This document shows, piece by piece, positions 1,413-40,240 of a DNA stretch of 45,401 bases (position 1 is its first letter; each line of letters begins with the position of its first letter). Source of the stretch: a virus; the IMG/VR virus record IMGVR_UViG_3300046517_002587, positions 1-45,401 of that record. One strand, given 5' to 3'. Both the position numbers and the translations under genes were made by a program. The notes under the pieces are model-generated. The model saw only the letters and a program-made list of their open reading frames with translations. It was not told where the DNA came from and ran no database searches.

Positions 1413-4400
1413 ATGGACGTGCGCAAGCAACCCATCGGCACCTGTCCCCACGGGCTGAAGATCTTTCTCGTCGACGGGGAGTCCGTCCGCACCGAGCATG
1501 ACTCGGACTTCGTTCAGGGCGGCAACCCGGAGCGCTACAAGTGGATTCCGAAGGGCGAGATCTGGATCGACGACACCACGCCGAAGCCCGAGGTCCCGTT
1601 CGTCGCGCTGCACGAGTGCAACGAGGCGAACCTCATGGCCACGAAGGGCGAGAGCTACGACCAGGCGCACGATGAGGCGAAGGAGCTGGAGAACAAGTTC
1701 CGCCACCACGCCACGCGCGTTGCGATCGTCACCTGCTACAACGGCCAGGGCCAGCTGCTCGTCGGCAAGCGCAACGACAACCAGCGCTACACGCTCCCCG
1801 CCGGTCACCTCGAAGACGGCGAGTCGCCGCAGGCAGGTGCCACGCGTGAGCTGTACGAAGAGACCGGTCTCCGCGCTCTGAGCCTGTCCCACCTCAAGAA
1901 CTACACGCTCACCGACGGTACGGAGCTGCACTGCTTCAGCGCGTACGTGTCCGGTGAGCCGCACAGTCAGAACGACCCTGACGACGAGGTTTCCGAGTGG
2001 GAGTGGGTCGACGTCGAGGAGGGTCTGCCGCCGAAGGTGTACAACCACCTCCACGGCCCGCAGGACGAGCAGAACCTCATCAAGCAGCTGTTCCAGCTCC
2101 AGAAGTCCGAGTGGGAGGAGCTGTTCAAGCGCGCGAAGGTTTGGCACTCGGACGACTGGGGCACCGCGCGTGTTTCGATCCCCTCGATGGAGCATCCGGA
2201 CCGCCCGCAGTACGATGCCAACTACACGGCCGCGCTGAAGGACCACTACGGACCGTTCATCAAGCCCGTCAAGGTGGCGACCGACCAGCTCATCCCGCAG
2301 AACGACGTCCACGACAAATCCCGCTACAACCTGTACCGCAAGATGTACCGCGCGGGCGAGAAGCTGCCGCCGCTCGTCGTGCGCAAGAGCAAGACGCCGG
2401 GCGCGTACGAGATCTTGGACGGCAACCACAAGTACCACGCCGCGAAGGCCGAGGGCGGTGGCAAGCTCGACGCGTACGAGATCGATGACGGCCTCTCGAA
2501 GGCCGAACAGCGTCTCGTCAAGGCCCTCAAGTTCATGGCGGCCTTCCGTCATCCGGTGAGCGGCAAGATCGTCAAGACCGGCTCGTTCCACGACGTCGAC
2601 CAGCTCCCCGAAGGGAAGCTCGGCTCGTTCCAGGACGGCTTCGTCGACGAGGGCGACAACTTTTACACGCGCGCGGAAGCCGCGCACGCCCTCAAGACGA
2701 CGCACCCGAGCTACAAGCCCACGAAGCTGGACTCGGGCGACCTCGAAGGGAACTGGCAGACCACCGGCCACGTCTACCGCGGCCTCGCGAAGGCCGAGGA
2801 CGAGGTCTTCCGCATGCTCGACAACCCCGATCCGGTCGAGCGCGCGATGGCTCTCAAGCTGGACACGGTCCGTCCGGAGCACCTCCTGGCCGCTGCTCTC
2901 GATCCTGACCCCTCGGTGTACCAGCCGGCCATCGATGACCCCCGCTTCGGGCCCTCCCAGTCCCTGAGCCTGATGGAGGCCGTGGCGGGCAAGAACGGCG
3001 CCTACCCGGACGCCCAGAAGCGCCTGTTCCTGTCCCGCTCGGGGCGGGTGGAGCCCTACCACTTCACCGCGCTCGTCCGCGCGGCTCGCATGGCCGGCCC
3101 GGCCTACCTTGCCCAGGCGGTGGCCCAGGTCGCCGGCCACCCGCAGGCGCCCGCGGGCATCCTGCGCTCCATGTACCTGGATCCAGACGTGATTCACGAT
3201 TCGCGAATGGCGATCGTGAGCCACCCCACGGCCACCCCCGACCTGCTGGATCACGCCCTGAAGACGGCCCTGTCCGTCCCCGGGGGCGGCGCCGCCGACC
3301 TTGGCGCGCGCGCCGTCGAGCACCTGGAGCTTCCGATCGGAAGCCTGCGGGCCCTGGTCGACCGCGCGGCCGACCGCGGCGAGCCGCACGTCACCGCGCT
3401 GGCGGCCCGCGCCTTGGAGTACAACCAAGGTCTGTCCACCCCGGCCCTGGCTGAGATCTTCCGCGACCTCCTCCCCAAGGCCCGCCTCATCCCCTCCGGA
3501 GCCGCGCCGGCCCTCCTGGCCGCGCTCCTGCGCAACAAGAGCACGTCCCCCGCGCTGGCGGACGAGGCCACCCGGCTCCTGCCGCCCGACACCCTCCTGC
3601 GCGCGGGCGTGATGGCGAACCCGTCGTTCGGCCCGCAGCACCTCCAGAAGATGCTCGATTCGCTCGTGTCGCCGACCGCCCCCGAGGTCGTGCACCACCA
3701 CGTGGTCATGCATCAGCTCGGCTTCGAGCCGGCGAACCACCGCGCGTTCAAGGCGGCTCAGTTTCTCGCCAACGGTGTCGAGGGTCCTTCGGAGGAGCAG
3801 GTGCGCTCGGTGCTCTACTTCGAGGATGGCGACATCGACCGCGCCGCTCTCGCAGCGTACAGCTTGCCGTGCACCGAGGAGAACCTGAAAGCTCTCCACG
3901 CCATCATGTCGTTGACGAAGTCGGATCCGATCATGGAGCCGACGCCGCACGCAGAGAAGGTCGTGACCGCGCACCTCGAAGGTGAAGACGTCGCTCAGAT
4001 GATCGAACGCGCGTTCAAGACGAACTACGTGTTCCCCGTTGCTCTCGGTGGCAAGCACTCGAAGGGCTCGATCATCGCGTACGACGACCAGACGCACACC
4101 ACGATTTTGCTCAAGTCCGGCAGCGGTGGAGCGGGTGGCGCAGCGGGCTCGAAGGAAGATCCGTCGAACCCCAACGCGCGCGAGGCTGCGTTCTACCACA
4201 TCGCGAAGCAGTGGGGCATCGGCGAGTACTACCCGCGCGCCGAGCTGGTCATCATCGACGACAAGATGTACTCCGCGCTCCAGCTGCTCGCCCTCGACTT
4301 CAAGACGCTCGACGAGAAGGAGCGCCAGGAGCCGGGCATCTCCCGCCGCATCCTGCACCCGTACCTCTACAGCGGCACGCTCCACAAGTGGGCGCTGATC

Positions 4401-4808
4401 GACTACATCCTCGGCAACCCGGACTCGCACGGCCAGAATGTGATGGTCAACGCGAAGGACGAGGTGCAGCTCATCGACCACGGATCGGCGTTCGCTGGTC
4501 CGAGCTTCGACCCGGGCCACGACAACAACTCGTTCGTGCCGTACTACCTGCGCGCGTGGTGCCTCGACGAGAACTTCACCAAGCTCGACACCGAAACGAA
4601 GCTCAAGTCGTTGCCGCGTGTCCCCGGCTCCGTCGCTGACGAGCTGAAGCGCTGGTTCGGCGACATCGTGCCCGAGAACGTACGCCTGGTCTGCACTCGT
4701 TACGGCATCAACACCGAGCCGACGATGGATCGTTTGCAGAAAGTCTCCGTGCGCCTCGGGAACGAGCCCCTCGATCTCGTTGTCAATTCTCTCTGGGTGA
4801 CGACTTAA
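1413..4808 (+). CDS. Multidomain protein: HExxE-like region, Nudix hydrolase, ParB-like domain, repeats, PI3K/HipA-like kinase
   Basis: A 1131-residue mosaic. Residues 1-95 hold IPKGEIWIDD and a HECNE motif (67-71), possibly a degenerate zincin-like fold. Residues 100-220 are a Nudix hydrolase; the Nudix box at 131-153 is complete (G, E, REL, EETG). Residues 285-360 look like a ParB-type nuclease domain with DGNHK at 336-340. Roughly 465-850 is a run of short helical pairs containing DPD/NPD-type turns, resembling HEAT-like repeats. The C-terminus resembles PI3/4-kinase or HipA kinases: N1002, D1004, H1006 and N1009 in a catalytic loop and D1022 in LIDHG. It follows the 39-aa gene by 3 nt inside the virion block. 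I infer a virion-associated or late effector acting on nucleotides and on a host protein or lipid. The domain order is seen; the activities are inferred. Confidence 0.8.
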   Translation: MDVRKQPIGTCPHGLKIFLVDGESVRTEHDSDFVQGGNPERYKWIPKGEIWIDDTTPKPEVPFVALHECNEANLMATKGESYDQAHDEAKELENKFRHHATRVAIVTCYNGQGQLLVGKRNDNQRYTLPAGHLEDGESPQAGATRELYEETGLRALSLSHLKNYTLTDGTELHCFSAYVSGEPHSQNDPDDEVSEWEWVDVEEGLPPKVYNHLHGPQDEQNLIKQLFQLQKSEWEELFKRAKVWHSDDWGTARVSIPSMEHPDRPQYDANYTAALKDHYGPFIKPVKVATDQLIPQNDVHDKSRYNLYRKMYRAGEKLPPLVVRKSKTPGAYEILDGNHKYHAAKAEGGGKLDAYEIDDGLSKAEQRLVKALKFMAAFRHPVSGKIVKTGSFHDVDQLPEGKLGSFQDGFVDEGDNFYTRAEAAHALKTTHPSYKPTKLDSGDLEGNWQTTGHVYRGLAKAEDEVFRMLDNPDPVERAMALKLDTVRPEHLLAAALDPDPSVYQPAIDDPRFGPSQSLSLMEAVAGKNGAYPDAQKRLFLSRSGRVEPYHFTALVRAARMAGPAYLAQAVAQVAGHPQAPAGILRSMYLDPDVIHDSRMAIVSHPTATPDLLDHALKTALSVPGGGAADLGARAVEHLELPIGSLRALVDRAADRGEPHVTALAARALEYNQGLSTPALAEIFRDLLPKARLIPSGAAPALLAALLRNKSTSPALADEATRLLPPDTLLRAGVMANPSFGPQHLQKMLDSLVSPTAPEVVHHHVVMHQLGFEPANHRAFKAAQFLANGVEGPSEEQVRSVLYFEDGDIDRAALAAYSLPCTEENLKALHAIMSLTKSDPIMEPTPHAEKVVTAHLEGEDVAQMIERAFKTNYVFPVALGGKHSKGSIIAYDDQTHTTILLKSGSGGAGGAAGSKEDPSNPNAREAAFYHIAKQWGIGEYYPRAELVIIDDKMYSALQLLALDFKTLDEKERQEPGISRRILHPYLYSGTLHKWALIDYILGNPDSHGQNVMVNAKDEVQLIDHGSAFAGPSFDPGHDNNSFVPYYLRAWCLDENFTKLDTETKLKSLPRVPGSVADELKRWFGDIVPENVRLVCTRYGINTEPTMDRLQKVSVRLGNEPLDLVVNSLWVTT

Positions 4809-5874: not shown

Positions 5875-6699
5875 ATGGCCGGCAGGAAGGCAGAAGGCAA
5901 CGTCGACCTCACCGGCCCGCTGACCACAGTCAGCTGGGACGAGGATGCGTTCGACGTCTTCATCCGCTCGCAGGGAGCGAAGCTCGTGCACTGGCGATCG
6001 ATGCCGTGTCCCGTCGGCATGACCGATCGGTACGACGTGCGCCGCACGGAGCATGACCACTCTGGGTGCTCGAACGGTCACATCTACACGAAGGCCGGCG
6101 AGATCACGTGTCTGTTCACCAACAACGGGAACAAACTGGACCAGAACGACATCGGCACGATCAACGGCTCCACGGTTCACGTGACGGCGCCGTTCACGTA
6201 CGACGACAACGAGACTAAGATGGTCGACGTGATGCCGTTCGACCGCTTCTTCCTCGCTGACGAGAACCTCCTGGTGCCGCACGTGCAGCGCGTGGAGCAC
6301 CACATGACCCTGCATGATCGCCTCGACTATTTGGCCGTCGAGGTCGTCGACATCATCGACAACCAGGGCCTGCGCCACGGCCCGGACGAGTACATCATCG
6401 AGAACGGTCAGATCGTGTGGAAGCAGTCGATCGGCTACGACCTGGTCGCGAAGAAGGGCACCATCTACTCTATCCGCTACTTCTACCGCCCGTACTGGTA
6501 CGTGAAAGTTCTACAGCAGCAGCTGCGCGTCGCCCAGGTCGAGACCATCGATGGCCGCGTTGCGAAGCGCTGGCCGCAAGAGTGGAACATGACCCGCGAG
6601 CACGTCTTCGAGAAGGAAGAGAACGACGACCTCGCCATCGATCCCAGCAGCCCGCGGCAGGTGAAGGGCCCGCGCGATTCCGCGTTTGGACCGCGGTAA
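5875..6699 (+). CDS. Virion structural protein candidate, 274 aa
   Basis: Cys and His residues cluster at 45-65 (PCPVGMT, EHDHSGCSNGH), possibly a metal site. A central region around IYSIRYFYRPYWYVKVL is aromatic and beta-rich. The C-terminus is charged and ends GPRDSAFGPR. It lies 6 nt after the preceding gene in the neck/tail region. The general character fits a tail-associated structural protein, but I do not recognise the family. Confidence 0.6.
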   Translation: MAGRKAEGNVDLTGPLTTVSWDEDAFDVFIRSQGAKLVHWRSMPCPVGMTDRYDVRRTEHDHSGCSNGHIYTKAGEITCLFTNNGNKLDQNDIGTINGSTVHVTAPFTYDDNETKMVDVMPFDRFFLADENLLVPHVQRVEHHMTLHDRLDYLAVEVVDIIDNQGLRHGPDEYIIENGQIVWKQSIGYDLVAKKGTIYSIRYFYRPYWYVKVLQQQLRVAQVETIDGRVAKRWPQEWNMTREHVFEKEENDDLAIDPSSPRQVKGPRDSAFGPR

Positions 6700-8396: not shown

Positions 8397-8776
8397 AGCT
8401 CAAGCTCCACCCCGGCACCTACGCCGAGTACGAAGTAGAGGGAACGCCGGCCGAGGTCGCGGAATTCGTCAGGGCTCTTGGAAAGGAGCCGCCAGCTCCT
8501 CTTCCGATCTCGATTCCGTCGGTGTTTGTACCGCTCGACGTGTGCCCGCTGGGCGACGGAGTTCATCGCTATCCAGCGGTGTGGTTGAGCGTGAGTCCTC
8601 CGACGTGCGAGAAGTGTGGGATGCCGGGAAAGTGGGTTCAGCCTCAGTGGACTGTGACATGGGACTCGTGTCTGGACCAGAAGAACCCGATGCCTCCGTG
8701 TAGTACGGAGACCGTGCAAGTGGGAAGCTTCTCCCTGCCCGCAGGTCCGCGAGGACCCCTAAGCTGTACCGACTAG
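8393..8776 (+). CDS. Hypothetical CxxC protein, 127 aa
   Basis: The ATG overlaps the preceding stop by 4 nt. The first 35 residues resemble a small alpha/beta unit (KLHPGTYAEYEVEGTPAEVAE). A CEKCGMPGKW motif sits near residue 75 with further cysteines downstream. Its 3' 308 nt overlap the antisense 3' end of the transglycosylase gene (8469-9179), so one of the two C-termini is probably unconstrained. Coupling to the upstream gene and the Cys motif favour this frame being real. Confidence 0.55.
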   Translation: MKLKLHPGTYAEYEVEGTPAEVAEFVRALGKEPPAPLPISIPSVFVPLDVCPLGDGVHRYPAVWLSVSPPTCEKCGMPGKWVQPQWTVTWDSCLDQKNPMPPCSTETVQVGSFSLPAGPRGPLSCTD

Positions 8777-9179
8777 GTCGGCAGCCCCGCGCCGGCCGGT
8801 TGTACTTCGTCAGCCAGCGGCTCGGCCGATCGCACTCGCGCACGAACCGAGACAAATACCAGACGCTGATGCGGATGTTCGTGTCGACGTCTTCGAGCTG
8901 ACGGCGCGTGAGACGCAGGTCCGCGCCCTGGATGGCCCCGTGGCGCAGTAGCTGCCCGAGCCCGACCTCACCGGCCGCGCCGACCGCGTGCTTGTCGTAG
9001 TGCGACTCGTGGTAGATTTTGGCGGCTTCGACTGCGGCCGGCACACCGTAGTGGGCGGAGTGCTTGGTGATGGCTGCGACCAGCTCGTGGACGTACGGCG
9101 TGTGACACCGCTCGTCTGGCGGAGGTCCGTGTTCGATCGTTCGCAGAACGCAGGCGAAGATGATGAGAGGGTGACTCAA
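8469..9179 (-). CDS. Lytic transglycosylase (SLT family)
   Basis: Residues 33-130 match the soluble lytic transglycosylase fold: AAKIYHESHYD with catalytic Glu58, then GEVGLGQL (70-77), and a downstream TKYNRPARGCRPSRYS segment typical of the C-terminal lobe. These enzymes cleave peptidoglycan between MurNAc and GlcNAc, in lysis or during DNA entry. The start is TTG at 9179, supported by AAGGAGGT upstream; no clear signal peptide follows. The last 100 or so residues are Ser/Thr/Pro-rich and lie antisense to 8393-8776, so the functional domain probably ends near residue 140. The DNA ligase gene lies 15 nt upstream on the same strand. Confidence 0.75.
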   Translation of the reverse strand: MSHPLIIFACVLRTIEHGPPPDERCHTPYVHELVAAITKHSAHYGVPAAVEAAKIYHESHYDKHAVGAAGEVGLGQLLRHGAIQGADLRLTRRQLEDVDTNIRISVWYLSRFVRECDRPSRWLTKYNRPARGCRPSRYSLGVLADLRAGRSFPLARSPYYTEASGSSGPDTSPMSQSTEAEPTFPASHTSRTSEDSRSTTPLDSDELRRPAGTRRAVQTPTESRSEEELAAPFQEP

Positions 9180-9194
9180 TCGGGACCTCCTTGG

Positions 9195-10364
9195 TTACTC
9201 GTAGTCGCGCACCGCCATGCCCACGCCGTGCGAGGGCTTCTTGTCGTCCGTCCACTCGAAGAACTTGACCGTGAGCTGCTGGCCGATCATGGCGTCCCCG
9301 CGGCGCAGGAACTCCTCGCGGTCCGCGAAGTTGCCCGGCGCGGTGCAGTCGAATTCCTGCGGCGCCCCGTCGTCGCGCCCCTCGACTGTGCGGCAGGTGA
9401 ACATGGCCAGTCCCGCGAACTTCCCGCGGCCCTCGTACACGCCGATGATCGGGAACTCCAGGTCCTTCCACCGCTTGACCTTGAGCAGGCCGTACGAACG
9501 CGAGTCCGACTCGTAGGGCGTGTCGAGGTTGCGGTACATCAGCCCCTCGTAGTGCTCGGCGACGAAGGAGTCCTCGACCTGGCGCATGTGAGTCTCGTCG
9601 CGCAGCTCGATGGTCTCGACCTTCTTGATCTCGGGCTGGTCGCCGATGATCTCGGTGAACAGGTCGCGGTGGTCCTCTTCGCGCTCGCGCCAGAGACGCT
9701 CCATCCCGCGCCCGTACATCACCGGGACGTCGTAGACGTGGTGCAGGATCTCCTCGAAGCCGGGCTTGGTGCCTTCCTTGCGGACGTAGCCCGAGATCTT
9801 CTGGAGCGACCACCCGTGGCGGTACAGCTCGCCGTCGATGGTGAACTCTCCCTTGACGCTGGCGAAGAGCCTCTCGTACGCGGCCTGGACGTGCGGCACG
9901 CCCACGATCGGCTTGCCCTTGCGGCTCCAGAGGCTGACGACGCCGTCATCGATGTTCACCAGGCAGCGGACGCCGTTCAGCTTGCGCTGGCCGTGCGCCG
10001 GGAAGGCGTGGTACTTGTCCTTGACCTCGCCGTAGACCTTGGCGAGCATGGGAGGCGTCCCTCCTTTGTCGCTCTCGCCCGCTTCGGCGCGGGCCAGGTC
10101 CTCGACGTAGCCCTCGCGCTCCTGCTTCTTGCGCCACTTCGCCTCGGCCTCGTTGGCCGCCTGCTGGATGGGCGTGGTCTCGTTCTTCTTGCCGGGGTTC
10201 TTACCCTCGGTCACGACGTCGACGCTGCACTGGAGCTTCCCGCCGACCTGGCCGTGTTCCACGACGATGGTGCCCTCGCCGCCCATCTTCTGGCCGGCTG
10301 AGATCGTCCACTGCTGGAGCGCGCCTCGACCGGACTTCTTGTACAGGGTCGGGAAGGTCTTCAT
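9195..10364 (-). CDS. ATP-dependent DNA ligase with N-terminal WGR-like domain
   Basis: 389 residues. Residues 1-85 resemble the WGR-like N-terminal module seen on some viral ligases (TLYKKSGRGALQQW, GKNPGKKNETT). The nucleotidyltransferase core shows motif I KLNGVR with adenylated Lys128, motif III FTIDGEL (174-180), motif IV YEGLMYRN (272-279) and motif V LLKVKRW (293-299), followed by an OB-fold-like end. It seals nicks in duplex DNA using ATP, for phage replication or repair. The start ATG at 10364 overlaps the upstream lipoprotein stop by 4 nt. Confidence 0.9.
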   Translation of the reverse strand: MKTFPTLYKKSGRGALQQWTISAGQKMGGEGTIVVEHGQVGGKLQCSVDVVTEGKNPGKKNETTPIQQAANEAEAKWRKKQEREGYVEDLARAEAGESDKGGTPPMLAKVYGEVKDKYHAFPAHGQRKLNGVRCLVNIDDGVVSLWSRKGKPIVGVPHVQAAYERLFASVKGEFTIDGELYRHGWSLQKISGYVRKEGTKPGFEEILHHVYDVPVMYGRGMERLWREREEDHRDLFTEIIGDQPEIKKVETIELRDETHMRQVEDSFVAEHYEGLMYRNLDTPYESDSRSYGLLKVKRWKDLEFPIIGVYEGRGKFAGLAMFTCRTVEGRDDGAPQEFDCTAPGNFADREEFLRRGDAMIGQQLTVKFFEWTDDKKPSHGVGMAVRDYE

Positions 10365-10597
10365 TCGCACACCTTGAAGTGGAAGACGCGGTCGCCGTCG
10401 GGGGTGGAAACGGTGCAGGCGGCGCGATCGGCCTTGCCCTGGACGTGCTGCGGCTTGCACTCCAGGACGGTGCCGAACTGGGCCGCGCGCACTTCAGGCT
10501 CGCGGCAGGTGGTGGCGCAGCCGGTCAAGGCCAGGATCGCGACTGCCACGGCGTCGACTACGATCCATGTGATGAAGAATCTGAGCGGGTGCTTCAT
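10361..10597 (-). CDS. Small lipoprotein, 78 aa
   Basis: Hydrophobic residues 6-26 end in LTGC, a canonical lipobox with Cys27 as lipidation site. The mature part has three further cysteines (CREPEV, LECKPQ, AACTVS) and a C-terminal Cys-Glu. The ATG lies 6 nt after the -10 hexamer, predicting a leaderless mRNA. It is the first gene of the unit lipoprotein, ligase, transglycosylase. An envelope role such as lysis or superinfection control is only inferred. Confidence 0.7.
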   Translation of the reverse strand: MKHPLRFFITWIVVDAVAVAILALTGCATTCREPEVRAAQFGTVLECKPQHVQGKADRAACTVSTPDGDRVFHFKVCE

Positions 10598-10603
10598 TCC
10601 CAG

Positions 10604-10632
10604 AGCTTACCCCAAGGACGAGGCGGTGTCAA
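10604..10632 (-). promoter_or_regulatory. Sigma70-like promoter for the lipoprotein-ligase-transglycosylase unit
   Basis: Minus-strand TTGACA and TAAGCT are separated by 17 nt. The -10 ends 6 nt before the ATG at 10597, so transcription should begin at or next to the start codon. The -35 lies at the 3' end of the dNMP kinase gene. Confidence 0.75.
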
Positions 10633-11414
10633 GCACCCATTCTGCGGAGGTCGCCGTACTGGACGGCCATCATGTCGTCGACCTGGGAGTACAGGGCCTC
10701 GAAGGTCGAGTCGTTCACGATGGTGTCGGAGAAGAAGTGGTCGGGGATCCCGTCCATCTCGCTCTCGCTCTTGTGGCCGGCGATGCCCACGAGCTTCAGC
10801 TCCTTCGAGGGGCGGGTGACGCGCCACGTCGTGCCGCCGAGGTAGGCGACGCCCAGCATCTCGTTGCGGAACCGGCCGTCCGTGATGATGGCGTAGTCGT
10901 AGGCCCGGTCGCTCTTCTCCATCCCCTCCTCGCGGGTGTAGGCGAACCCGCCCTCGACCAGCTGGCGCGCGTTCGCGATGGCGCGATCGATCCACATCTT
11001 GGGGGCGAAGTTGCGGCCCCATTCGGTGCCTAGGGTCTGGAGGACGACCCGAGCCGAGATGGCGCCGTCGATGACCAGGCGCTTCTGGACGTGCTCGACG
11101 TACCATTCCCGCAGACCCTCGCCGTAGGACGACCGGGGGTCGAAGGAGTGGCCGAAGACGTCTACCGCGAGGCAGTCGATCGCGCGGGCGAAGTCGCCCA
11201 CCTGGAGCTGGTCATCAGCCACGGGGGCGTTCCGGGCTTCGCTGGGGCCCCAGAGCTGGTGGTCCGTGAACCCCAGCAGGCGCTTGACGAACCGCTTCAT
11301 CGGGTCAGCCTGGGCGACGCAGACCCCGTTGTAGTTCTCCGCGATGTAGCCCGCGACCGTGTCCTTGCCGGACCCAGCCTTGCCTGAGACGATGATGATC
11401 GGTGTGTTGGACAT
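10629..11414 (-). CDS. Deoxynucleoside monophosphate kinase
   Basis: A Walker A P-loop (GKAGSGKDT, residues 11-19) opens the protein. LQTLGTEWGR and ITDGRFRNE in the second half are typical of phage dNMP kinases of the T4 gene 1 type, which phosphorylate dNMPs to dNDPs for DNA synthesis. Its 261 residues fit the family. GGAGG lies 8 nt before the ATG. A GATTCCGTAGAAAT element upstream on the same strand is a probable promoter. Confidence 0.85.
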   Translation of the reverse strand: MSNTPIIIVSGKAGSGKDTVAGYIAENYNGVCVAQADPMKRFVKRLLGFTDHQLWGPSEARNAPVADDQLQVGDFARAIDCLAVDVFGHSFDPRSSYGEGLREWYVEHVQKRLVIDGAISARVVLQTLGTEWGRNFAPKMWIDRAIANARQLVEGGFAYTREEGMEKSDRAYDYAIITDGRFRNEMLGVAYLGGTTWRVTRPSKELKLVGIAGHKSESEMDGIPDHFFSDTIVNDSTFEALYSQVDDMMAVQYGDLRRMGA

Positions 11415-11865: not shown

Positions 11866-13146
11866 ATGGACGTTTTCGTTTGTTGGGACGGCGACAAGAT
11901 CGGCCGCCGCGTCGGGCGAGCAGTGCTCGCGAACGACGTGGGTGAGGTCCGTCGAGTCGACCAGGCCATCAACTCCGGCAATGAGATCTGGAAGGCCTTC
12001 GCCGTGAACCACGGCGGCTCGGTCATCGAAATCGGTGGCGACGAAGGCAGGATCATGATCGATGCCAGCTGGCTGGCCGAGATGCCTTCCATCGCGCGCG
12101 GCTACGCGAACCTCGTGGGCGCCACGGTGTCCGTGGGCGTCGGGATGAGCATGTCCGACTCCGCCATGGCCCTCGTGGTCGCGAAGCTCCGCGGCGGCAA
12201 TCAGATCTTGGTGTGGGACCCGAAGGCGATGGCCGGCGAGTACCAGGCCGCGGTGGACGCGCCGAAGACCGAGCAGCAGAAGCTGACCGACGAGTACCTC
12301 GCCAAGGCCGACACGCCGAAGGGCCCCGAGTCGAAGTCGGCCGGCGGCAAGGACGTGCAGAAGGTCCTGGAGCACAACACCGCCAAGAACAAGGGCCCGA
12401 CCGCGGGCTTCGCCGTCCAGCACAAACCCGGCTTCACCGACATGAAGCACCCGGGCGATGTGATCGGTGACGATCCGAAGCCGGCCACGCCCGAGATGAC
12501 CCACGCCGCGGGCGCAGACGAGAACATGAACCAGGACATGGAATCAGACCTTCACTCTGCGGCCGAGGATTCCGGCAAGCAAGCGGAAGCCGATGGTGAC
12601 GCGGGCCAGAAGAAGACCGAGTCCGTCAAGAAGATGGTCACCGACTCGCTCACCAACATCCGCAAGCAGCTGCCCGACATCGTGCGGCTCCAACAGTACG
12701 CGCCCGAAGCGTACAAGGCCATCATCGGCCTCGTCCAGGGCGTCGTCCTCCTCGGCAAGGAAGTGATGGGCGACGGACCTCCGATGGACGACGAGCCCCA
12801 GGTCATCAAGGACGCGATGGCAAAGTCCGAGGACGGCTGCCCGCACTGCGACGAGAAGGAGTTCATCCCGCACAAGGACGGCTCCAAGACTTGCAAGGGT
12901 TGTTTCAAGGACTACTCCGCGGTCGAGAAGGCCGACAGCTCTCCGATCGAAGGCACGCCCACGCACCACAAGATGAACTTCCCCGTCGGCTCGGCCGTCA
13001 ACGGCAAGATCAAGGTTCAGCACGGTGACGGCAAGACCGGCTGGAAGCAGGTCGACTCCGGCATGGTGCAGGCGCAGGACGCAGACGCGCCCATTGTCGG
13101 CGCCAACAGTCACCCGGTCTCCTCCCGCGAACCGTCGAGCAGCTGA
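11866..13146 (+). CDS. Palm-domain nucleotide polymerase/cyclase-like protein (mCpol/GGDEF-like) with disordered and zinc C-terminus
   Basis: Residues 1-117 look like a minimal palm domain. They run from DGDKIG (Asp8 and Asp10 as possible metal ligands), through GGDE at 57-60 in the second metal-binding hairpin, to GATVSVGVG (86-93) and an AMALVVAKLRGGN helix, the order found in GGDEF cyclases, Cas10 palms and mCpol. A long Lys/Ala/Asp-rich linker follows, then CPHCDEKEF...CKGCFKDY, a probable zinc ribbon near 325-350. mCpol and GGDEF enzymes make cyclic nucleotides or oligonucleotides; an equivalent product here is inference. The gene overlaps the next one by 1 nt and stands among virion genes, so the protein may be packaged. 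Confidence 0.65.
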   Translation: MDVFVCWDGDKIGRRVGRAVLANDVGEVRRVDQAINSGNEIWKAFAVNHGGSVIEIGGDEGRIMIDASWLAEMPSIARGYANLVGATVSVGVGMSMSDSAMALVVAKLRGGNQILVWDPKAMAGEYQAAVDAPKTEQQKLTDEYLAKADTPKGPESKSAGGKDVQKVLEHNTAKNKGPTAGFAVQHKPGFTDMKHPGDVIGDDPKPATPEMTHAAGADENMNQDMESDLHSAAEDSGKQAEADGDAGQKKTESVKKMVTDSLTNIRKQLPDIVRLQQYAPEAYKAIIGLVQGVVLLGKEVMGDGPPMDDEPQVIKDAMAKSEDGCPHCDEKEFIPHKDGSKTCKGCFKDYSAVEKADSSPIEGTPTHHKMNFPVGSAVNGKIKVQHGDGKTGWKQVDSGMVQAQDADAPIVGANSHPVSSREPSSS

Positions 13147-14000
13147 TGTTCTCCATCAACGTCGACCTGTCCCAGCTGAACGAGCTGATGGAAGTCGGCC
13201 CCGCGCTCAAGAAGATCGCTGACGACGCAGGCGAGGAGCTGTCCAAGATGGTCGTCGCGAAGGCGAAGGAGATCGCGGCCGACAAGCTCCACACGCGTCG
13301 CCAGATGTACCAGGACGGTTTGAGCTGGGACAGGGCCGGGGACAACACCTACGTGGTCTCGCTCTCCGCGAAGGTGCGCTGGATTGACGACGGCCAGTCC
13401 GCGTTCGACATGCTCAAGGCCTTGCTCAATTCGCCGAAGGCGAAAACCGGCAAGAAGGGCAAGTACCTCGTCGTCCCGTTCCACACCGGCCCCAAGGGCA
13501 GTGCGGAGGGGATGAACACCCGCATCGGCAACACGTCTGCGCAGCAGGACCTCGTCAACACCGTCAAGAAGGAGCTGAAGTCCCGCGGCATCCCCTTCGG
13601 CAAGATCGAGAAGGACGCGAATGGGCAGGACCGCACGGGCAAGCTCCACAGCTTCAACATTTCGAACGCGCCCACCAAGAAGGACGCGGGCCCAGGCCAG
13701 CGCCGCGGGCCTGTGGGAGACGTCATGCAGGGCTCGAAAGGGGCCGGCGAGAAGTCGGGCACGCCGTTCTTGCAGGGCGTGTCCATCCACCAGTTCAAGG
13801 ACAAGAACGGGAAGACCAAGCGATCGATCATGACCTTCCGCGTGGCCTCCGAGTCTCAATCGGGCATGGCGAAGTGGGAGCACCCGGGCAACGCGGCCGT
13901 CGACATCCTCGACAAGGCCGCGGAGCAGGCGGTCGAGATGTGGCACAAGGAGATCGCTCCGGCCATCCTCGACAAGGCCCTCGCTGAGATGAACAGCTAG
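13146..14000 (+). CDS. HK97 gp10-like neck/tail-completion candidate, 284 aa
   Basis: An N-terminal helix (GPALKKIADDAGEELSKMVVAKAKEIAADK) is followed by a beta segment (TYVVSLSAKVRWIDDG). The C-terminus has FRVASESQSGMAKWEHPG then long helices (ILDKAAEQAVEMWHKEIAPAIL). This order resembles gp10-family head-tail joining proteins, but a roughly 100-residue insertion (GKKGKYLVVPF to GTPFLQG) makes it longer than usual. The ATG overlaps the upstream stop; its own stop overlaps that of the convergent gene by 4 nt. Confidence 0.45.
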   Translation: MFSINVDLSQLNELMEVGPALKKIADDAGEELSKMVVAKAKEIAADKLHTRRQMYQDGLSWDRAGDNTYVVSLSAKVRWIDDGQSAFDMLKALLNSPKAKTGKKGKYLVVPFHTGPKGSAEGMNTRIGNTSAQQDLVNTVKKELKSRGIPFGKIEKDANGQDRTGKLHSFNISNAPTKKDAGPGQRRGPVGDVMQGSKGAGEKSGTPFLQGVSIHQFKDKNGKTKRSIMTFRVASESQSGMAKWEHPGNAAVDILDKAAEQAVEMWHKEIAPAILDKALAEMNS

Positions 14001-14364: not shown

Positions 14365-15363
14365 GTGGCGGACACGGAACTAAAAGGCGTTTTCCAGGGC
14401 GACATCATCGTCCGCACGGCGATCATCCGTGCCATGGACCTCGTCCGTGCCGACCCGAAGCTGCTCGACCACGTCTTCCACTCGCTCGCGGAGGACGAGC
14501 TGACCCGCGACGTGTACGGCGCGAAGCAGATCGCAGAAGCCCGCAAGTGGTTCATGAAGACCGACATCCCGGTGTTCATGAACTTCCGCGTGGCTGAGGA
14601 AGCTCTGCCGTGCATCACTATCTCGCTTCAGGAGTCGGCGGAGGCCGACCAGACCCACGGTGACGTCCACTACGTGACGGAAGAGAGGTCGCCGGGAGAC
14701 TGGCCCGCGCTCACCGAGCCGTTCACGCCGGTCGCGTACTCGCCCGGGTCGGGGATCATGGTCCTGCCCATCGACGTCATGGGCAACAGGGTTGTCGCTG
14801 CGGGCATGCAGCTGGTGACTCGCGACGGTCGCTCGTACACGATCATGCAGAACCTCGGCGACGATGAGATCTCGTTGAAGCCGGGTACGGTCGACGACTT
14901 CAAGAACGCCGTCATCAAGGGCGCGACCGACCGCTTTGCGACTACCGTCGAGAGCGTCACGTTCAAGGAGGTCTACCAGATCGGCATCCACGTGATGGGC
15001 GAGCCTACCTACCTCCTCCACCTGCATTCCATCGTGCAGTTCATGCTCCTCAAGTACAAGCAGGAGCTGCTGGAGACCCGCGGCTTCGAGCGCACGTCGC
15101 TCACCTCGACCGACTTCCGTCGCAACCTGGAGTTCGACAACGAAGAGGTCTTCGCCAGGTTCATCACCATCACCGGCTACGCGCGCCACTACTGGCCGAA
15201 GGCTACGAACCCGCTGATCGATGTCGTCGACACGCAGCCGGCGTTCGAGCCGACGTTCGCGTACGAACCCGGCCTGGTACCCGCCCCCGCACCCCCGCCC
15301 GTTGATGACCAGGGCGAAGGCCTGAACGACGACGACGCCTGGGGCGTCATTCCCGTGGAGTAA
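14365..15363 (+). CDS. Neck/tail-terminator-like structural protein candidate, 332 aa
   Basis: GTG start 6 nt after AATCTT. The N-terminal helices lead to KTDIPVFMNF and LPCITISLQES, reminiscent of tail-terminator proteins that cap the tube, and the middle is beta-rich. The last 60 residues are Pro/Asp-rich and probably flexible (PAPAPPPVDDQGEGLNDDD). Position between the gp10-like gene and the sheath supports a neck role. The specific family is not certain. Confidence 0.45.
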   Translation: MADTELKGVFQGDIIVRTAIIRAMDLVRADPKLLDHVFHSLAEDELTRDVYGAKQIAEARKWFMKTDIPVFMNFRVAEEALPCITISLQESAEADQTHGDVHYVTEERSPGDWPALTEPFTPVAYSPGSGIMVLPIDVMGNRVVAAGMQLVTRDGRSYTIMQNLGDDEISLKPGTVDDFKNAVIKGATDRFATTVESVTFKEVYQIGIHVMGEPTYLLHLHSIVQFMLLKYKQELLETRGFERTSLTSTDFRRNLEFDNEEVFARFITITGYARHYWPKATNPLIDVVDTQPAFEPTFAYEPGLVPAPAPPPVDDQGEGLNDDDAWGVIPVE

Positions 15364-17938: not shown

Positions 17939-20455
17939 ATGTCTCAGAATTTCCCCACCGACGCTGGCGTACTGATCACCCCGGGTGCGTACGCGCGCTA
18001 CAACGTCGTCCAGCAGAACACCGGCATCGCCACCACGGGCGTCATCATGCTCGTCGGTGAGGCGGACGCCGGCCCCGATTTCACCCAGGAAGAGGACCTC
18101 GCGTCCACTGTCTTCGGTCCGGGCCAGATCGGCGACGTCAAGGCGAAGTACAAGACCGGTCGACTGGTCGATGCGTTCAACGCGGGCGCGGTCCCGGCGA
18201 ACGACCCCCAGATCCAGGGTGCGCCCGCGGGCTTCATCCTGGTGAAGACCAACCCGTCGACGAAGGCGTCGGGAATCCTCTCGCACTTCGACGACACCAA
18301 CTACGCGACCATCCAGGATCGCAGCTGGGGCAAGATCGGCAACCTGATCTCGTTCGAGGTCACGGCGAAGACGGAAGAGTCCGTTCCGAGCACGGGTTCG
18401 TTCGCGATCATGCTTCCCATCGCGTCCACCAACATCTCGTTCCGCGTGAACGGCGGAACCGAGCTGGCGGTCACCATCGCAGCCCTTGACACTCCGACCA
18501 CCACGGCCACTGCCATCGGCGGTCTCGCTGGCATCGACTGTGACGGCGGCGCTGCTGTCGCCTGCCTCACGGCCGCCACGGGCACCATCGCCCTGACGGT
18601 CATCGGTGGTTCCGGAAGCTTCAAGGTCCAGCTCGATCGCTCGATCCCCTTCGACCTCCTGCCGGCAATCGGTGACACGCTCTACATCCCGTCGACGGCA
18701 GGCCTCGCCGTGGCTCACGCCGTGAACGCGGGCTCGTACATCGTGACGGGCGCAAGCACGTCGCAGATCCTCGCGACGAAGATGCTCGACGTCACGGGCG
18801 CTCCCGACGCGCGCACCGCGCCGATCACCACGGCCGCGACCGCGGTCGTCGGAACGGGCGACCTCGTCGGCTACGGCGCCATCACCATCCACCTCATTGA
18901 CGCCGTCGACCCCATCGACGGCTACGGCAAGAGCCTCCAGTTCAACGAGCTGGAGACCGGCACTGGCACGGTTCTGTCGCTCTGCTACACGCTCGGCTCC
19001 TCGGGCCCGGCAGCGGTCAACTTCATCTCGACGGACGAAGATCCATTCCTCATCGTCTCGGGCGCCGAGTACGTGGCGACTCTGACCGAGTCGCGCCAGG
19101 TCGACAACGTCACCAACGACATCAACGCGGGCGGCGGCATCGGCCTCAAGATCGGCTACCTGGGCACCACGGCTCTCGTGACCGTCGACAGCACCTCCAT
19201 CTCGGTCGTGGCGGTCGGCGGCACCAACGCCGGCACCCTCACCGTCCTCCTGGCGGACTACCCGTCCATCGCGGACCTCGCGGCGTTCATCAACTCGAAC
19301 GACGGCTACACCTGCACCCCGGGCACCGCAGTCCTCGGCTCCCTGCCCTCGACCGCTCTCGACCAGGTCACCTCGCTCGGCTGCTGCTCGACGTGGGAAG
19401 CCCTGACCCCGGGACGCATCAAGGTGGACGCGTACAAGTTCTTCACCGCTCTGCGCGACAACGGCTTCCTCACGGAGCTGTCGGCGCAGGCGACCTCGGG
19501 TCTCCCGCAGCCGAGCGTCGGCGTCTCGTTCCTCTCGGGCGGTGCGAAGGGCGCAACCTCGGACGCGAACATCGCGGCGGCCTTCGACGCGCTCAAGATG
19601 GTTCGTGGCAACTTCCTCGTCCCGCTGTTCTCGCGTGACGCCACGGGCGACATCGCCGACGGTCAGACCGACACGTCGTCGACGTACACGATCGAGGCGG
19701 TGCACGCGAACGCGCGCGCCCACGTCCTCCAGATGTCGACGCTGAAGAAGCGCCGCAACCGCCAGGCCTTCCTGTCGCTCCGCGGCGCCCTCTCGGACGT
19801 CAAGTCCGCCTCGGGCGAGCTGGCCTCGTTCCGCTGCTCGCTCGCGTTCCAGGACGTGCGCGATCGTTCGATCGCCGGCAGCGTCGCGCAGTTCCAGCCC
19901 TGGATGAACTCGGTCAAGGCCGCGGGCATGCAGGCCGCCGGCTTCTACCGCGCGATCTTCAACAAGGGCATCGCCATCTCCGGCGCTCTCCAGGCGGCCG
20001 GCGACTTCAACGACCAGGACGACGACGCCGTCGAGCTGGCGCTGGAGGCGGGTCTGCTCATCATCGCTCGTCCCCCGACGGGTGGCTTCAAGTACGTGTC
20101 CGACCAGACGACGTACGGCCGCGACAACAACTTCGTGTACAACAGCATCCAGGCTGTGTACGTGGCCGACATCATCTCGCTCACCACGGCGCAGATCATG
20201 GAGCAGGCGTTCGTCGGCCAGTCCCTCGCGGACGTGTCGGCAGCGCAGGCGCTCTCGGTCCTCGACGCGATCATGGACAACATGCGCCGCCTGAAGCTCA
20301 TCGCGTTCAGCGACGACGCGCCGAAGGGCTACAAGAACCCGGTCATCAAGATCAACGGCCCCGCGATGGTGGTGAGCGCCGAGGTGAAGGCTGCGACCGC
20401 GCTGTACTTCATCCCGATCACGTTCTCCATCACGCAGATCCAGCAGTCGGCGTAA
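17939..20455 (+). CDS. Contractile tail sheath protein, 838 aa
   Basis: The N-terminus (FPTDAGVLITPGAYARYNVVQ) and C-terminus (TTYGRDNNFVYNSIQAVYVADIISLT, then VKAATALYFIPITFSITQIQQ) match the conserved ends of myovirus sheath proteins, which build the contractile outer tube. The middle (about 140-460) is Thr/Ala/Gly/Val-rich and looks like one or more inserted beta domains on the outside of the sheath, making it longer than T4 gp18. It is followed by the tube gene under its own AATCTT copy. Confidence 0.85.
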   Translation: MSQNFPTDAGVLITPGAYARYNVVQQNTGIATTGVIMLVGEADAGPDFTQEEDLASTVFGPGQIGDVKAKYKTGRLVDAFNAGAVPANDPQIQGAPAGFILVKTNPSTKASGILSHFDDTNYATIQDRSWGKIGNLISFEVTAKTEESVPSTGSFAIMLPIASTNISFRVNGGTELAVTIAALDTPTTTATAIGGLAGIDCDGGAAVACLTAATGTIALTVIGGSGSFKVQLDRSIPFDLLPAIGDTLYIPSTAGLAVAHAVNAGSYIVTGASTSQILATKMLDVTGAPDARTAPITTAATAVVGTGDLVGYGAITIHLIDAVDPIDGYGKSLQFNELETGTGTVLSLCYTLGSSGPAAVNFISTDEDPFLIVSGAEYVATLTESRQVDNVTNDINAGGGIGLKIGYLGTTALVTVDSTSISVVAVGGTNAGTLTVLLADYPSIADLAAFINSNDGYTCTPGTAVLGSLPSTALDQVTSLGCCSTWEALTPGRIKVDAYKFFTALRDNGFLTELSAQATSGLPQPSVGVSFLSGGAKGATSDANIAAAFDALKMVRGNFLVPLFSRDATGDIADGQTDTSSTYTIEAVHANARAHVLQMSTLKKRRNRQAFLSLRGALSDVKSASGELASFRCSLAFQDVRDRSIAGSVAQFQPWMNSVKAAGMQAAGFYRAIFNKGIAISGALQAAGDFNDQDDDAVELALEAGLLIIARPPTGGFKYVSDQTTYGRDNNFVYNSIQAVYVADIISLTTAQIMEQAFVGQSLADVSAAQALSVLDAIMDNMRRLKLIAFSDDAPKGYKNPVIKINGPAMVVSAEVKAATALYFIPITFSITQIQQSA

Positions 20456-38155: not shown

Positions 38156-40240
38156 ATGTCCCGCGCCGGCTACTACAACCTCGCCCAGGACTTTGGGGCG
38201 TCGAACCTCGACGACCTCTACGAGATGGATCCGTACTGGATCATTGCGGTCATCCGTCTCGGCGAGCCGCTGTCGTTCAACCGCAAGAAGATGTCGTCGG
38301 ACTCCACCGACCTCTCCTCGGGCGCATTGCTGCGCGCTGCACTTCCTCTCGTCATCACCGACGACTGCATTCAGCTGAGCGTCTCGATGGGAAAGGGCGC
38401 GGAGACGAAGTCGTTGAACGCCACGCTCAAGCAGACGAACATCAACTACCTCGTCGAGATTCTCCCCGGCGACTGGGTGATGGCGTGGATGGTGAACAAC
38501 CGCACCGACTACGAATCGCTGGTCTCCAAGATCAGCGACATCGCCTCGGGCGCCAACACGAAGGACATGGTCAACGGCTTCCACGATGGTTTGAAGTTCG
38601 TCGGCCGCGTCGACGACGTCTACAAGGACGTGGTCGTCGATCCGAACATCGGCACCAAGATCTCCAACTACAGCTTGAAGTGCAGCGGCTTCGCCGAGCT
38701 GAACACGTACATGTACTACGACTACGCGCTCGCCACGTCGGACGCTCAGGGCGGCAACTTCGGCTGGATGGCTCGCTTCGGTGTCAGCACGGACGCGCTC
38801 TTCGGCAACGACGCCGAGGAGGGCATCAAGCAGAACAACATCAACAACATCGTCCCCACGCTGCTCGACCTCGTGCTTGGCAAGGGGCCGGCGCCAGTGG
38901 GAGACATCTCGCTCGACGGTCCCGGTGGAAACATCAGCGCGACCCCGCAGCTCGCAGACCAGGCGGACCCGAACCGTTCGAGCGGGAACGACCCTCCGTA
39001 CTCCTACCTCGTTCCGATCTCAGTCGGCAACCTCCTCGGGAAGAAGTCGGCCAGCAAGGGGATCATGTCGTATGCCGACATCCTGGAGCTGTGGACGGGC
39101 GTGCACTCGTACAACGTCAAGTCCGGAGAGCTGACGTTCACGCCGGAGTTCGACCACTCGGTCGGCAGCAGCCGTCGCGTAACGAAGGGTGGGGAGCTGC
39201 TCGGCACGTTCCTTCCGTTCATGCCGGACTTCGCGAACCGTCCGCTGTGGGGCGTGTTGCAGCAGTACGTGAACCACGCCATCAACGAGATCTACACCGC
39301 GATGAAGGTGAACCCGGAGGGCCGCATCGTCCCGACGGTCGTGTTCCGTCAAATCCCGTTCACCACTGACGCTCTCAAGCTCCCGACCGACTCGCAAGAC
39401 ATCGGCAAGGGCACGACTACGAGCGCTTCGCAGGAGTTCGTCTCGGCGGACGACAGCTCGATCAACGTCACCAAGTTCCTCGACCTCCCGCGCTGGTACA
39501 TCCCCTCGGTGATGGTGAAGCGCGTGCACGTGGGCCGCAGCAACGCGACCCGCACGAACTTCGTGCACGTCTACGGTACGGCGACGAACTTGCAGAACCA
39601 GGGCACTGGCGTCCAGTACCAGATGCTCACCAACCCGCCGGTCCGGGACGACGTGGACATCTTCCGCTCGGGTTGCCACACGCACGTGAGCACGGTGGAC
39701 TGCTGGGTCGACGACAGCGTCGGCAAGGTGCCGGGCAAGTGGATGGCTCTCATCGCTGACTGGATGATGGGCTCGCACCTCACGCTGAACGGCATGGTAG
39801 ATCTGTTCGGTGTCCAGGCTCCCATCGCCGAGGGCGACAACGTCGTGTTCGATGGCGTCGTCTACCACGTCATGCAGGTGGATCACTTCGCGAACATCGA
39901 CACGGCCTCGGGAGCCAAGCACTTCGGCACCACGCTCCAGCTCACCAACGGCATGCGCGATCAGGACCTGAACCCGGCCTTCAACGAGTCGGACTTGGGC
40001 AAAGGCCTCCAGCCCATCTACCCTGGCTTCCTGCCCGACGACAACACCGCTCTCGATCCTGGCCTCACCCTGGAGCAGAACCCGACCACGGGCGGCATCA
40101 CGCAGCACCACGCCGCGGAGGAGAAGCCGAAGGCTGACACCGCCGCCACCCCGCTCAACCCGAACAGCGATGCAGCTATTCGCGCTCGCGCCGATGCGCC
40201 GCCCGACTATAGCAACACCGATCTGAAGGACCTGCTCTAA
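38156..40240 (+). CDS. Baseplate hub candidate, 694 aa
   Basis: It lies between the tape measure and the spike. Early segments (IQLSVSMGKGAETKSLNATL, INYLVEILPGDWVMAWMVNN) look like the beta-barrel strands of gpD/gp27-type hubs that form the ring at the tail tip. The middle has PYSYLVPISVGNLLGKKSASKG and a large beta region; the end is Pro/Asp-rich. The stop overlaps the spike ATG. The assignment depends mainly on position and size. Confidence 0.55.
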   Translation: MSRAGYYNLAQDFGASNLDDLYEMDPYWIIAVIRLGEPLSFNRKKMSSDSTDLSSGALLRAALPLVITDDCIQLSVSMGKGAETKSLNATLKQTNINYLVEILPGDWVMAWMVNNRTDYESLVSKISDIASGANTKDMVNGFHDGLKFVGRVDDVYKDVVVDPNIGTKISNYSLKCSGFAELNTYMYYDYALATSDAQGGNFGWMARFGVSTDALFGNDAEEGIKQNNINNIVPTLLDLVLGKGPAPVGDISLDGPGGNISATPQLADQADPNRSSGNDPPYSYLVPISVGNLLGKKSASKGIMSYADILELWTGVHSYNVKSGELTFTPEFDHSVGSSRRVTKGGELLGTFLPFMPDFANRPLWGVLQQYVNHAINEIYTAMKVNPEGRIVPTVVFRQIPFTTDALKLPTDSQDIGKGTTTSASQEFVSADDSSINVTKFLDLPRWYIPSVMVKRVHVGRSNATRTNFVHVYGTATNLQNQGTGVQYQMLTNPPVRDDVDIFRSGCHTHVSTVDCWVDDSVGKVPGKWMALIADWMMGSHLTLNGMVDLFGVQAPIAEGDNVVFDGVVYHVMQVDHFANIDTASGAKHFGTTLQLTNGMRDQDLNPAFNESDLGKGLQPIYPGFLPDDNTALDPGLTLEQNPTTGGITQHHAAEEKPKADTAATPLNPNSDAAIRARADAPPDYSNTDLKDLL

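What the first reader, a model, noticed from the sequence alone, without database searches (positions are those of the whole stretch)
11866..12220. mCpol/GGDEF-like palm domain in a virion-block protein
Residues 1-117 contain DGDKIG, GGDE, VSVGVG and an AK..GGN helix in the order of minimal palm nucleotide polymerases. mCpol-type enzymes are known from bacterial anti-phage signalling systems, where they make cyclic nucleotides. A phage copy, flanked by neck genes and carrying a disordered tail plus zinc ribbon, could make a decoy signal, interfere with host signalling, or be delivered with the DNA.
Basis: partly seen in the sequence, partly recalled or inferred. Interest (0 to 1): 0.8.

Follow-up and report, generated by a model that had tools for sequence, protein, structure and literature searches.

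The report
Phage virion-block protein with mCpol enzyme
A little-known group of large tailed phages carries, in the gene block that builds head and neck, a protein whose front end is the small nucleotide-cyclising enzyme (mCpol) that bacteria use in the Panoptes anti-phage system, usually with its catalytic residues intact, which suggests that these phages make their own immune-signal nucleotides.

Summary
Residues 5-115 of the 426-aa ORF at 11866-13146 match Pfam mCpol (PF18182; 48 bits against a cut-off of 26.4, E 1.6e-12). The predicted fold is closest to the solved Panoptes OptS mCpol (TM 0.85-0.88).

It is not a one-off. I found 51 distinct phage mCpol domains, all fused to the N-terminus of the same virion-block carrier protein, just upstream of a conserved neck-type gene. 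Among named phages only Myxococcus phage Mx1 has it. Both metal-binding aspartates survive in 42 of 51; nine have lost at least one, including Mx1, in about five independent events. Two lineages have deleted the domain but kept the carrier. The palm domain is therefore an ancestral, mostly active, dispensable module and not an assembly part.

The carriers have the make-up of polyvalent (virion-delivered) proteins: disorder, GNAT/YunG/zinc modules, and a virion-specific KSE motif that looks like a head-protease site. No Panoptes-type receptor was found in 19 phage records.

Best reading: a probably packaged cyclic-nucleotide synthase that manipulates host nucleotide signalling. Activity, product, packaging and target are all untested.

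The parts
11866..12216 (+). mCpol palm domain, residues 1-117 (Pfam match 5-115)
   Evidence: PF18182 E 1.6e-12; AF2 pLDDT about 90 and best PDB matches OptS; synteny-conserved in 51 distinct phage sequences
11884..11904 (+). first catalytic motif W7-D8-G9-D10-K-I-G13; D8 corresponds to OptS metal ligand D6
   Evidence: alignment with OptS; D8 in 42/51 and D10 in 51/51 phage homologues
11959..11973 (+). base-selectivity region D32-Q-A-I-N36 (D32 = OptS S30, N36 = OptS N34)
   Evidence: alignment; position 32 is S in 35/51 phages but D in the window, L002, L003 and L010; role of S30/N34 from PMC12657218 and PMC12657230
12034..12045 (+). second catalytic motif G57-G58-D59-E60; D59 corresponds to OptS D57
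   Evidence: alignment; D59 in 47/51 phage homologues
12307..12543 (+). disordered linker, residues 148-226
   Evidence: AF2 pLDDT below 50
12529..12768 (+). helical middle segment of the carrier, residues 222-301
   Evidence: AF2 helices; retained in orthologues that lack mCpol
12823..12831 (+). KSE motif (residues 320-322), candidate head-maturation-protease site
   Evidence: virion-block enrichment of KSE; inference
12838..12903 (+). zinc-ribbon-like CPHC...CKGC (residues 325-346), a variable insert of the carrier
   Evidence: sequence; present in L002 and L003, replaced by other modules elsewhere
12970..13143 (+). conserved C-terminal segment 'PVGS..GKIKV.H.DG..GW......HPVSSREP'
   Evidence: 57% identical between the L012 and Mx1 C-termini, against 32% for window and Mx1 in the mCpol domain; alignment
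13146..14000 (+). neck/tail-completion-type gene, immediately downstream (phrog_16819)
   Evidence: phrog_16819 E 2.9e-13; downstream of the carrier in every locus of the lineage that could be read
14365..15363 (+). next conserved virion gene (weak match to phrog_1000), ahead of the tail sheath gene at 17939-20455
5875..6699 (+). upstream virion structural gene (phrog_1004) of the same block
   Evidence: synteny

Best explanation
The ORF encodes a bona fide mCpol-family palm nucleotidyltransferase fused to a virion-block carrier protein. SHOWN by sequence and structure prediction: mCpol membership, predicted OptS-like fold, both metal aspartates (D8, D59), carrier and neck synteny across a phage lineage, and dispensability of the domain. 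INFERRED: (1) the carrier is taken into the head (helical and C-terminal core as targeting part, KSE sites trimmed by the head protease) and its N-terminal mCpol enters the cell with the DNA, as for polyvalent proteins; (2) there it dimerises and makes a cyclic dinucleotide from NTPs, without needing activation; (3) this nucleotide acts on host nucleotide-based immunity: either it keeps inhibitory-ligand effectors of the Panoptes type switched off when a phage sponge has removed the host's own ligand, or it occupies receptors of CBASS-type systems with a non-activating isomer. Repeated decay or deletion of the palm fits an accessory, host-dependent function.
For: PF18182 well above cut-off in the window and relatives. 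Fold closest to OptS. Catalytic aspartates intact in 42/51 homologues. Invariant place upstream of the neck gene. Modular inserts (GNAT, YunG-like, zinc, DUF5661) in carriers, and the Mx1 neighbour matches ART-PolyVal plus NUDIX plus GNAT, the make-up described for injected polyvalent proteins (PMC5512222). KSE 17 observed against 2.4 expected in the Mx1 virion block, 1 against 5.5 in the rest of Mx1 examined, 23 against 2.9 in window-clade carriers and none inside the mCpol domain. A second palm cyclase (GGDEF) in ten related phages, in or next to head-block genes in those read. Acb2/Tad1-type sponges in 4 of the 34 related phage records searched, including L003, the closest long relative of the window.
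Against: No enzymology, no virion proteomics, no known target. Nine homologues have lost D8 and/or D59 but kept the domain (the fold of one, L007, was checked), which hints at an additional non-catalytic role. Acb2-type sponges are present in only a minority and one sits with a degenerate mCpol (L025), so no tight coupling. KSE cleavage is unproven, and KSE is only weakly enriched in the second clade (6 against 1.8).
Confidence: 0.5

Rival explanations
1. The palm domain is mainly an assembly or structural module of the neck/head, perhaps binding NTPs or dimerising, with no signalling role.
For: Fixed position among neck genes; domain retained without its metal ligands in nine homologues, one of which (L007) still folds with pLDDT 94 and TM 0.86 to OptS.
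Against: Orthologous carriers in L097/L099 and L155-L157 lack the domain altogether while keeping helical core, C-terminus and synteny, two independent losses; conserved metal ligands in 42/51.
Confidence: 0.2
2. An enzyme made in the infected cell (late gene) and never packaged, which shifts host cyclic-dinucleotide physiology, like a phage-borne GGDEF enzyme.
For: Catalytic residues intact; many of the same phages also encode GGDEF domains with complete motifs.
Against: Fusion to a virion-block carrier with KSE sites and polyvalent-type modules argues for packaging; late expression would be late for host take-over.
Confidence: 0.17
3. A phage-borne Panoptes-like defence that excludes competing phages, with a paired effector.
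For: Cellular mCpols work this way; the P. syringae control locus shows a CD-NTase-like gene, mCpol and Cap15-type receptor side by side.
Against: No Cap15/OptE receptor (PF18153) in 19 phage records, while Pfam finds it in the control locus; neighbours are virion genes; other receptor types (CARF, SAVED, HEPN) were not searched genome-wide.
Confidence: 0.05
4. Inhibitor by imitation: the phage palm pairs with host OptS or binds its nucleotides, poisoning the host enzyme; the degenerate copies are the end state.
For: OptS active sites are shared between protomers (PMC12657218); five or so independent losses of metal ligands with the domain retained.
Against: Only about 18-23% identity to OptS in the structure alignments; most copies keep catalysis.
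Confidence: 0.08

Closest known systems
Panoptes OptS / mCpol (PDB 9mnr, 9pd0, 9nwn; PF18182)
   Same: Same palm fold (TM 0.85-0.88), both metal aspartates, DGD, G and SxGVG motifs, alignable base-selectivity positions.
   Different: Phage origin; fused to a large disordered virion-block carrier; no adjacent OptE/S-2TMbeta receptor; GGDE in place of the AAD of OptS; D at the S30 position in the window group.
CARF/HEPN-mCpol fusion proteins (PADLOC CARF_HEPN_mCpol)
   Same: mCpol as one domain of a fusion protein.
   Different: No CARF or HEPN domain found in the phage proteins.
Phage polyvalent proteins (PMC5512222), including prophage GGDEF-containing ones
   Same: Multi-domain, modular, virion-block encoded, GNAT and ART modules in the same protein set; GGDEF in such proteins already described.
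   Different: mCpol is not named among their domains in that paper (term search only); here it is lineage-fixed at one position.
Cas10/Csm1 palm and GGDEF diguanylate cyclases
   Same: Palm-type cyclase superfamily.
   Different: Window and relatives match Cas10 and GGDEF models only below cut-off; structure match weaker (GGDEF about 0.45-0.56).
Myxococcus phage Mx1 WNM70340.1 ('hypothetical protein')
   Same: Orthologue by position and full-length similarity; the only named-phage relative.
   Different: Active site lost (WSID / GAVG); below the Pfam cut-off (21 against 26.4 bits).

Membership tests
mCpol (PF18182) | Score above the curated family cut-off over the whole domain | tested here: met
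   48.3 bits against 26.4, profile 2-112 of 114
mCpol (PF18182) | OptS-like palm fold | tested here: met
   AF2 pLDDT about 90; top six PDB matches are mCpol; prediction, not an experimental structure
mCpol (PF18182) | Two metal-binding aspartates (OptS D6, D57) | tested here: met
   D8 and D59 by ungapped alignment
mCpol (PF18182) | Synthesis of cyclic dinucleotides from NTPs | not testable with these tools
   needs enzymology
Panoptes defence system | Two-gene operon with an OptE-type (S-2TMbeta/Cap15) receptor effector | tested here: not met
   neighbours are virion genes; no PF18153 in 19 phage records, control locus positive
GGDEF diguanylate cyclase (PF00990) | Match to the GGDEF family model | tested here: not met
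   no PF00990 match in the window record; only GGDEF_GdpP at E 0.21
Phage polyvalent proteins | Several unrelated enzymatic domains in one virion-block polypeptide | tested here: inconclusive
   met in L005 and L012 (mCpol plus GNAT); the window protein itself has one enzyme domain plus a zinc motif
Phage polyvalent proteins | Packaging in the virion and delivery with DNA | not testable with these tools
   indirect only: KSE enrichment, location

The most novel reading that the evidence does not exclude
Phage virions carry and inject a cyclic-dinucleotide synthase related to an enzyme of bacterial immunity, which refills the inhibitory ligand pool so that Panoptes-type guard effectors stay off while the phage's own sponges disarm CBASS: an antidote to a guard system. 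Lineages with dead copies would have turned it into an inhibitor or nucleotide binder.
Probability: 0.15. Interest if true: 0.92.

Novelty: new variant of a known kind. Interest (0 to 1): 0.72.

Why it matters
mCpol is known so far as a bacterial anti-phage enzyme. The two 2025 Panoptes papers that I searched describe it in prokaryotes and give no phage copies in the passages I read. A phage lineage that has kept a mostly intact mCpol in its virion block, with repeated inactivation and deletion, is a natural test of whether phages manipulate nucleotide immunity by making signals, not only by degrading or sequestering them. Active, dead and missing versions exist at one syntenic site, so cause and effect can be tested directly, and Mx1 gives a cultivable relative for virion proteomics.

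Tried and rejected
Canonical GGDEF: rejected, no PF00990 match in the window record. Chance motif order: rejected. Recent host acquisition: no relative of this phage family in 84,980 species genomes with phage-family patterns; the second genome scan found only a P. syringae Panoptes locus. Phage-borne Panoptes: no receptor. mCpol as an obligatory assembly domain: rejected by carriers that lack it. Strict coupling with Acb2/Tad1 sponges: not supported, 4 of 34 related records, one with a degenerate mCpol; no Acb1 in 18 records. Led nowhere: single-sequence Mx1 scan of viral contigs, OptS and plasmid searches, nine-row C-terminal alignment (no usable pattern). A sample of 398 Pseudomonadota genomes gave one clear mCpol (the P. 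syringae genome that was the search's centre); two others pass the cut-off only weakly in long frames and may be Cas10-like (not followed up), which fits its reported rarity.

Full report
Observation. The ORF at 11866-13146(+) encodes 426 aa. Residues 5-115 match Pfam PF18182 mCpol at 48.3 bits (cut-off 26.4, E 1.6e-12); PADLOC's CARF_HEPN_mCpol model agrees (1.2e-5), and the two Panoptes mCpol structures are the first hits in the PDB by sequence. The metal ligands of Klebsiella OptS, D6 and D57 (PMC12657218), correspond without gaps to D8 and D59 here. The full-length AlphaFold2 model has a confident palm (residues 1-131), a disordered stretch (148-226), a helical segment (222-301) and a weakly modelled zinc and C-terminal part. 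Foldseek puts six mCpol chains first (TM-target 0.85-0.88), then GGDEF and adenylyl cyclase domains at about 0.4-0.56.

A phage family, not a single case. Among 50,697 named phage records only Myxococcus phage Mx1 has a relative (WNM70340.1, 31.7% identity, E 5e-5). Alignment-based scans of IMG/VR contigs raised the set step by step. Scanning instead for the downstream neck-type gene and then testing each locus with a phage mCpol HMM gave the least biased view. In total there are 51 distinct phage mCpol sequences, many on contigs of 150-182 kb. In every readable locus of the lineage the carrier gene lies just upstream of the 13146-type gene, which is followed by the 14365-type gene and the sheath. 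dN/dS for the domain is 0.19-0.29 between the window and L002, L003 and L010.

Catalytic state. Of 51 sequences, 42 keep both D8 and D59; D10 and G91 are invariant. Nine have lost D8, and four of these also D59: Mx1 (WSID / GAVG), L007, L062, L068, L087, L089, L096, L025 and L103. The L007 domain still folds with pLDDT 94 and is closest to OptS (TM up to 0.86). In five loci the orthologous carrier has no palm domain: L097 and L099 start directly in the linker, and in L155-L157 the palm is replaced by repeated CxxC zinc knuckles, while helical core, C-terminal segment and synteny remain. A tree of the neck protein (56 loci) needs five changes for the degenerate state (four forced by well-supported branches) and two for absence (one locus counted as intact, L024, shows only part of its domain). 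With an intact ancestor, assumed from the distribution, the domain is ancestral and repeatedly inactivated or deleted. That pattern fits an accessory enzyme better than a building block.

The carrier. Between palm and C-terminus different members carry GNAT, YunG-like, DUF5661 or zinc modules. The YunG-like and GNAT modules also occur in the neighbouring 1479-aa Mx1 protein, which scores as ART-PolyVal, NUDIX and GNAT; these are hallmarks of polyvalent proteins thought to be injected (PMC5512222). The tripeptide KSE occurs 17 times in the Mx1 virion block (2.4 expected) and once in the other Mx1 proteins examined (5.5 expected); permuted tripeptides are not enriched; window-clade carriers hold 23 (2.9 expected), none within the palm. 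The head protease of SPN3US cuts after Glu (A-X-E; PMC10052503), so KSE is a reasonable candidate site, unproven. The conserved MCP N-terminus ends in a similar QIED/QVED stretch.

Other nucleotide-signalling genes. Ten phages of the window/Mx1 clade also encode a GGDEF domain over cut-off: L003, L005, L007, L010, L015, L028, L062, L100, L101 and Mx1. In the six read in full it lies in or beside the head-block polyprotein, with the GGDEF motif complete in five (L022, from the L007 phage, reads GGDEG). The sampled members of the second clade lack it. Acb2/Tad1 sponge proteins occur in the L003, L067, L107 and L025 phages; no Acb1 and no Cap15/OptE receptor were seen, although Pfam finds the receptor in the P. 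syringae control locus.

Mechanism. Shown: family, predicted fold, residues, synteny, dispensability. Inferred: packaging, activity, target. In Panoptes, OptS makes 2',3'-c-di-AMP that holds the effector off, and phage sponges release it (PMC12657218, PMC12657230). A phage that supplies such a nucleotide could keep the guard silent; a phage that supplies a non-activating isomer could block CBASS receptors. The base-selecting position is Ser in 35 of 51 phages, as in Klebsiella OptS, but Asp in the window group, so its product may differ; this is inference.

Limits. All relatives except Mx1 are uncultivated contigs, many incomplete, so absences of GGDEF, Acb2 or receptors are weak evidence. The window record itself is 45.4 kb and ends before the expected capsid and protease genes, so its own GGDEF status is unknown. 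No prior report of phage mCpol appeared in the open-access papers searched, but that library is incomplete.

Noticed in passing
L017-L022; OR576727.2 17173-17904: GGDEF-type palm cyclase in or next to the prohead-protease polyprotein of related phages (annotated 'nucleotide cyclase' in Mx1), substrate and GGDEF motifs complete in most.
   Followed up: partly
Virion blocks of Mx1 (L001, L016) and the window; carriers: KSE tripeptide strongly enriched in virion-block proteins and depleted elsewhere in Mx1: a candidate head-protease recognition motif.
   Followed up: partly
L187-L198 (MCP); L016 10003-13722: MCP N-terminus 'KALEAGNYNAAPSTLVQGAALQIED' is conserved across the lineage and an Mx1-like copy lies inside the large prohead-protease polyprotein.
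   Followed up: partly
L155:5541-6980, L156:5667-6995, L157:5541-6980: Palm domain of the carrier replaced by an array of CxxC zinc knuckles.
   Followed up: partly
window 1413-4808: 1131-aa virion-block protein with NUDIX and ParB-like segments, whose C-terminal third matches the Mx1 'kinase' (HipA/PI3K-like) protein: another polyvalent-type protein.
   Followed up: partly
window 8469-9179, 9195-10460, 10629-11414 (-): Minus-strand insert of a transglycosylase-like ORF (by eye), an ATP-dependent DNA ligase and a dNMP kinase inside the virion block, upstream of the mCpol gene; its presence varies among relatives.
   Followed up: no
G002:C1 about 40008-40175 (L200), L201, L202, G012:C1:41346-41513: Acb2/Tad1-type cyclic-nucleotide sponge genes in phages that also carry the mCpol carrier.
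   Followed up: partly
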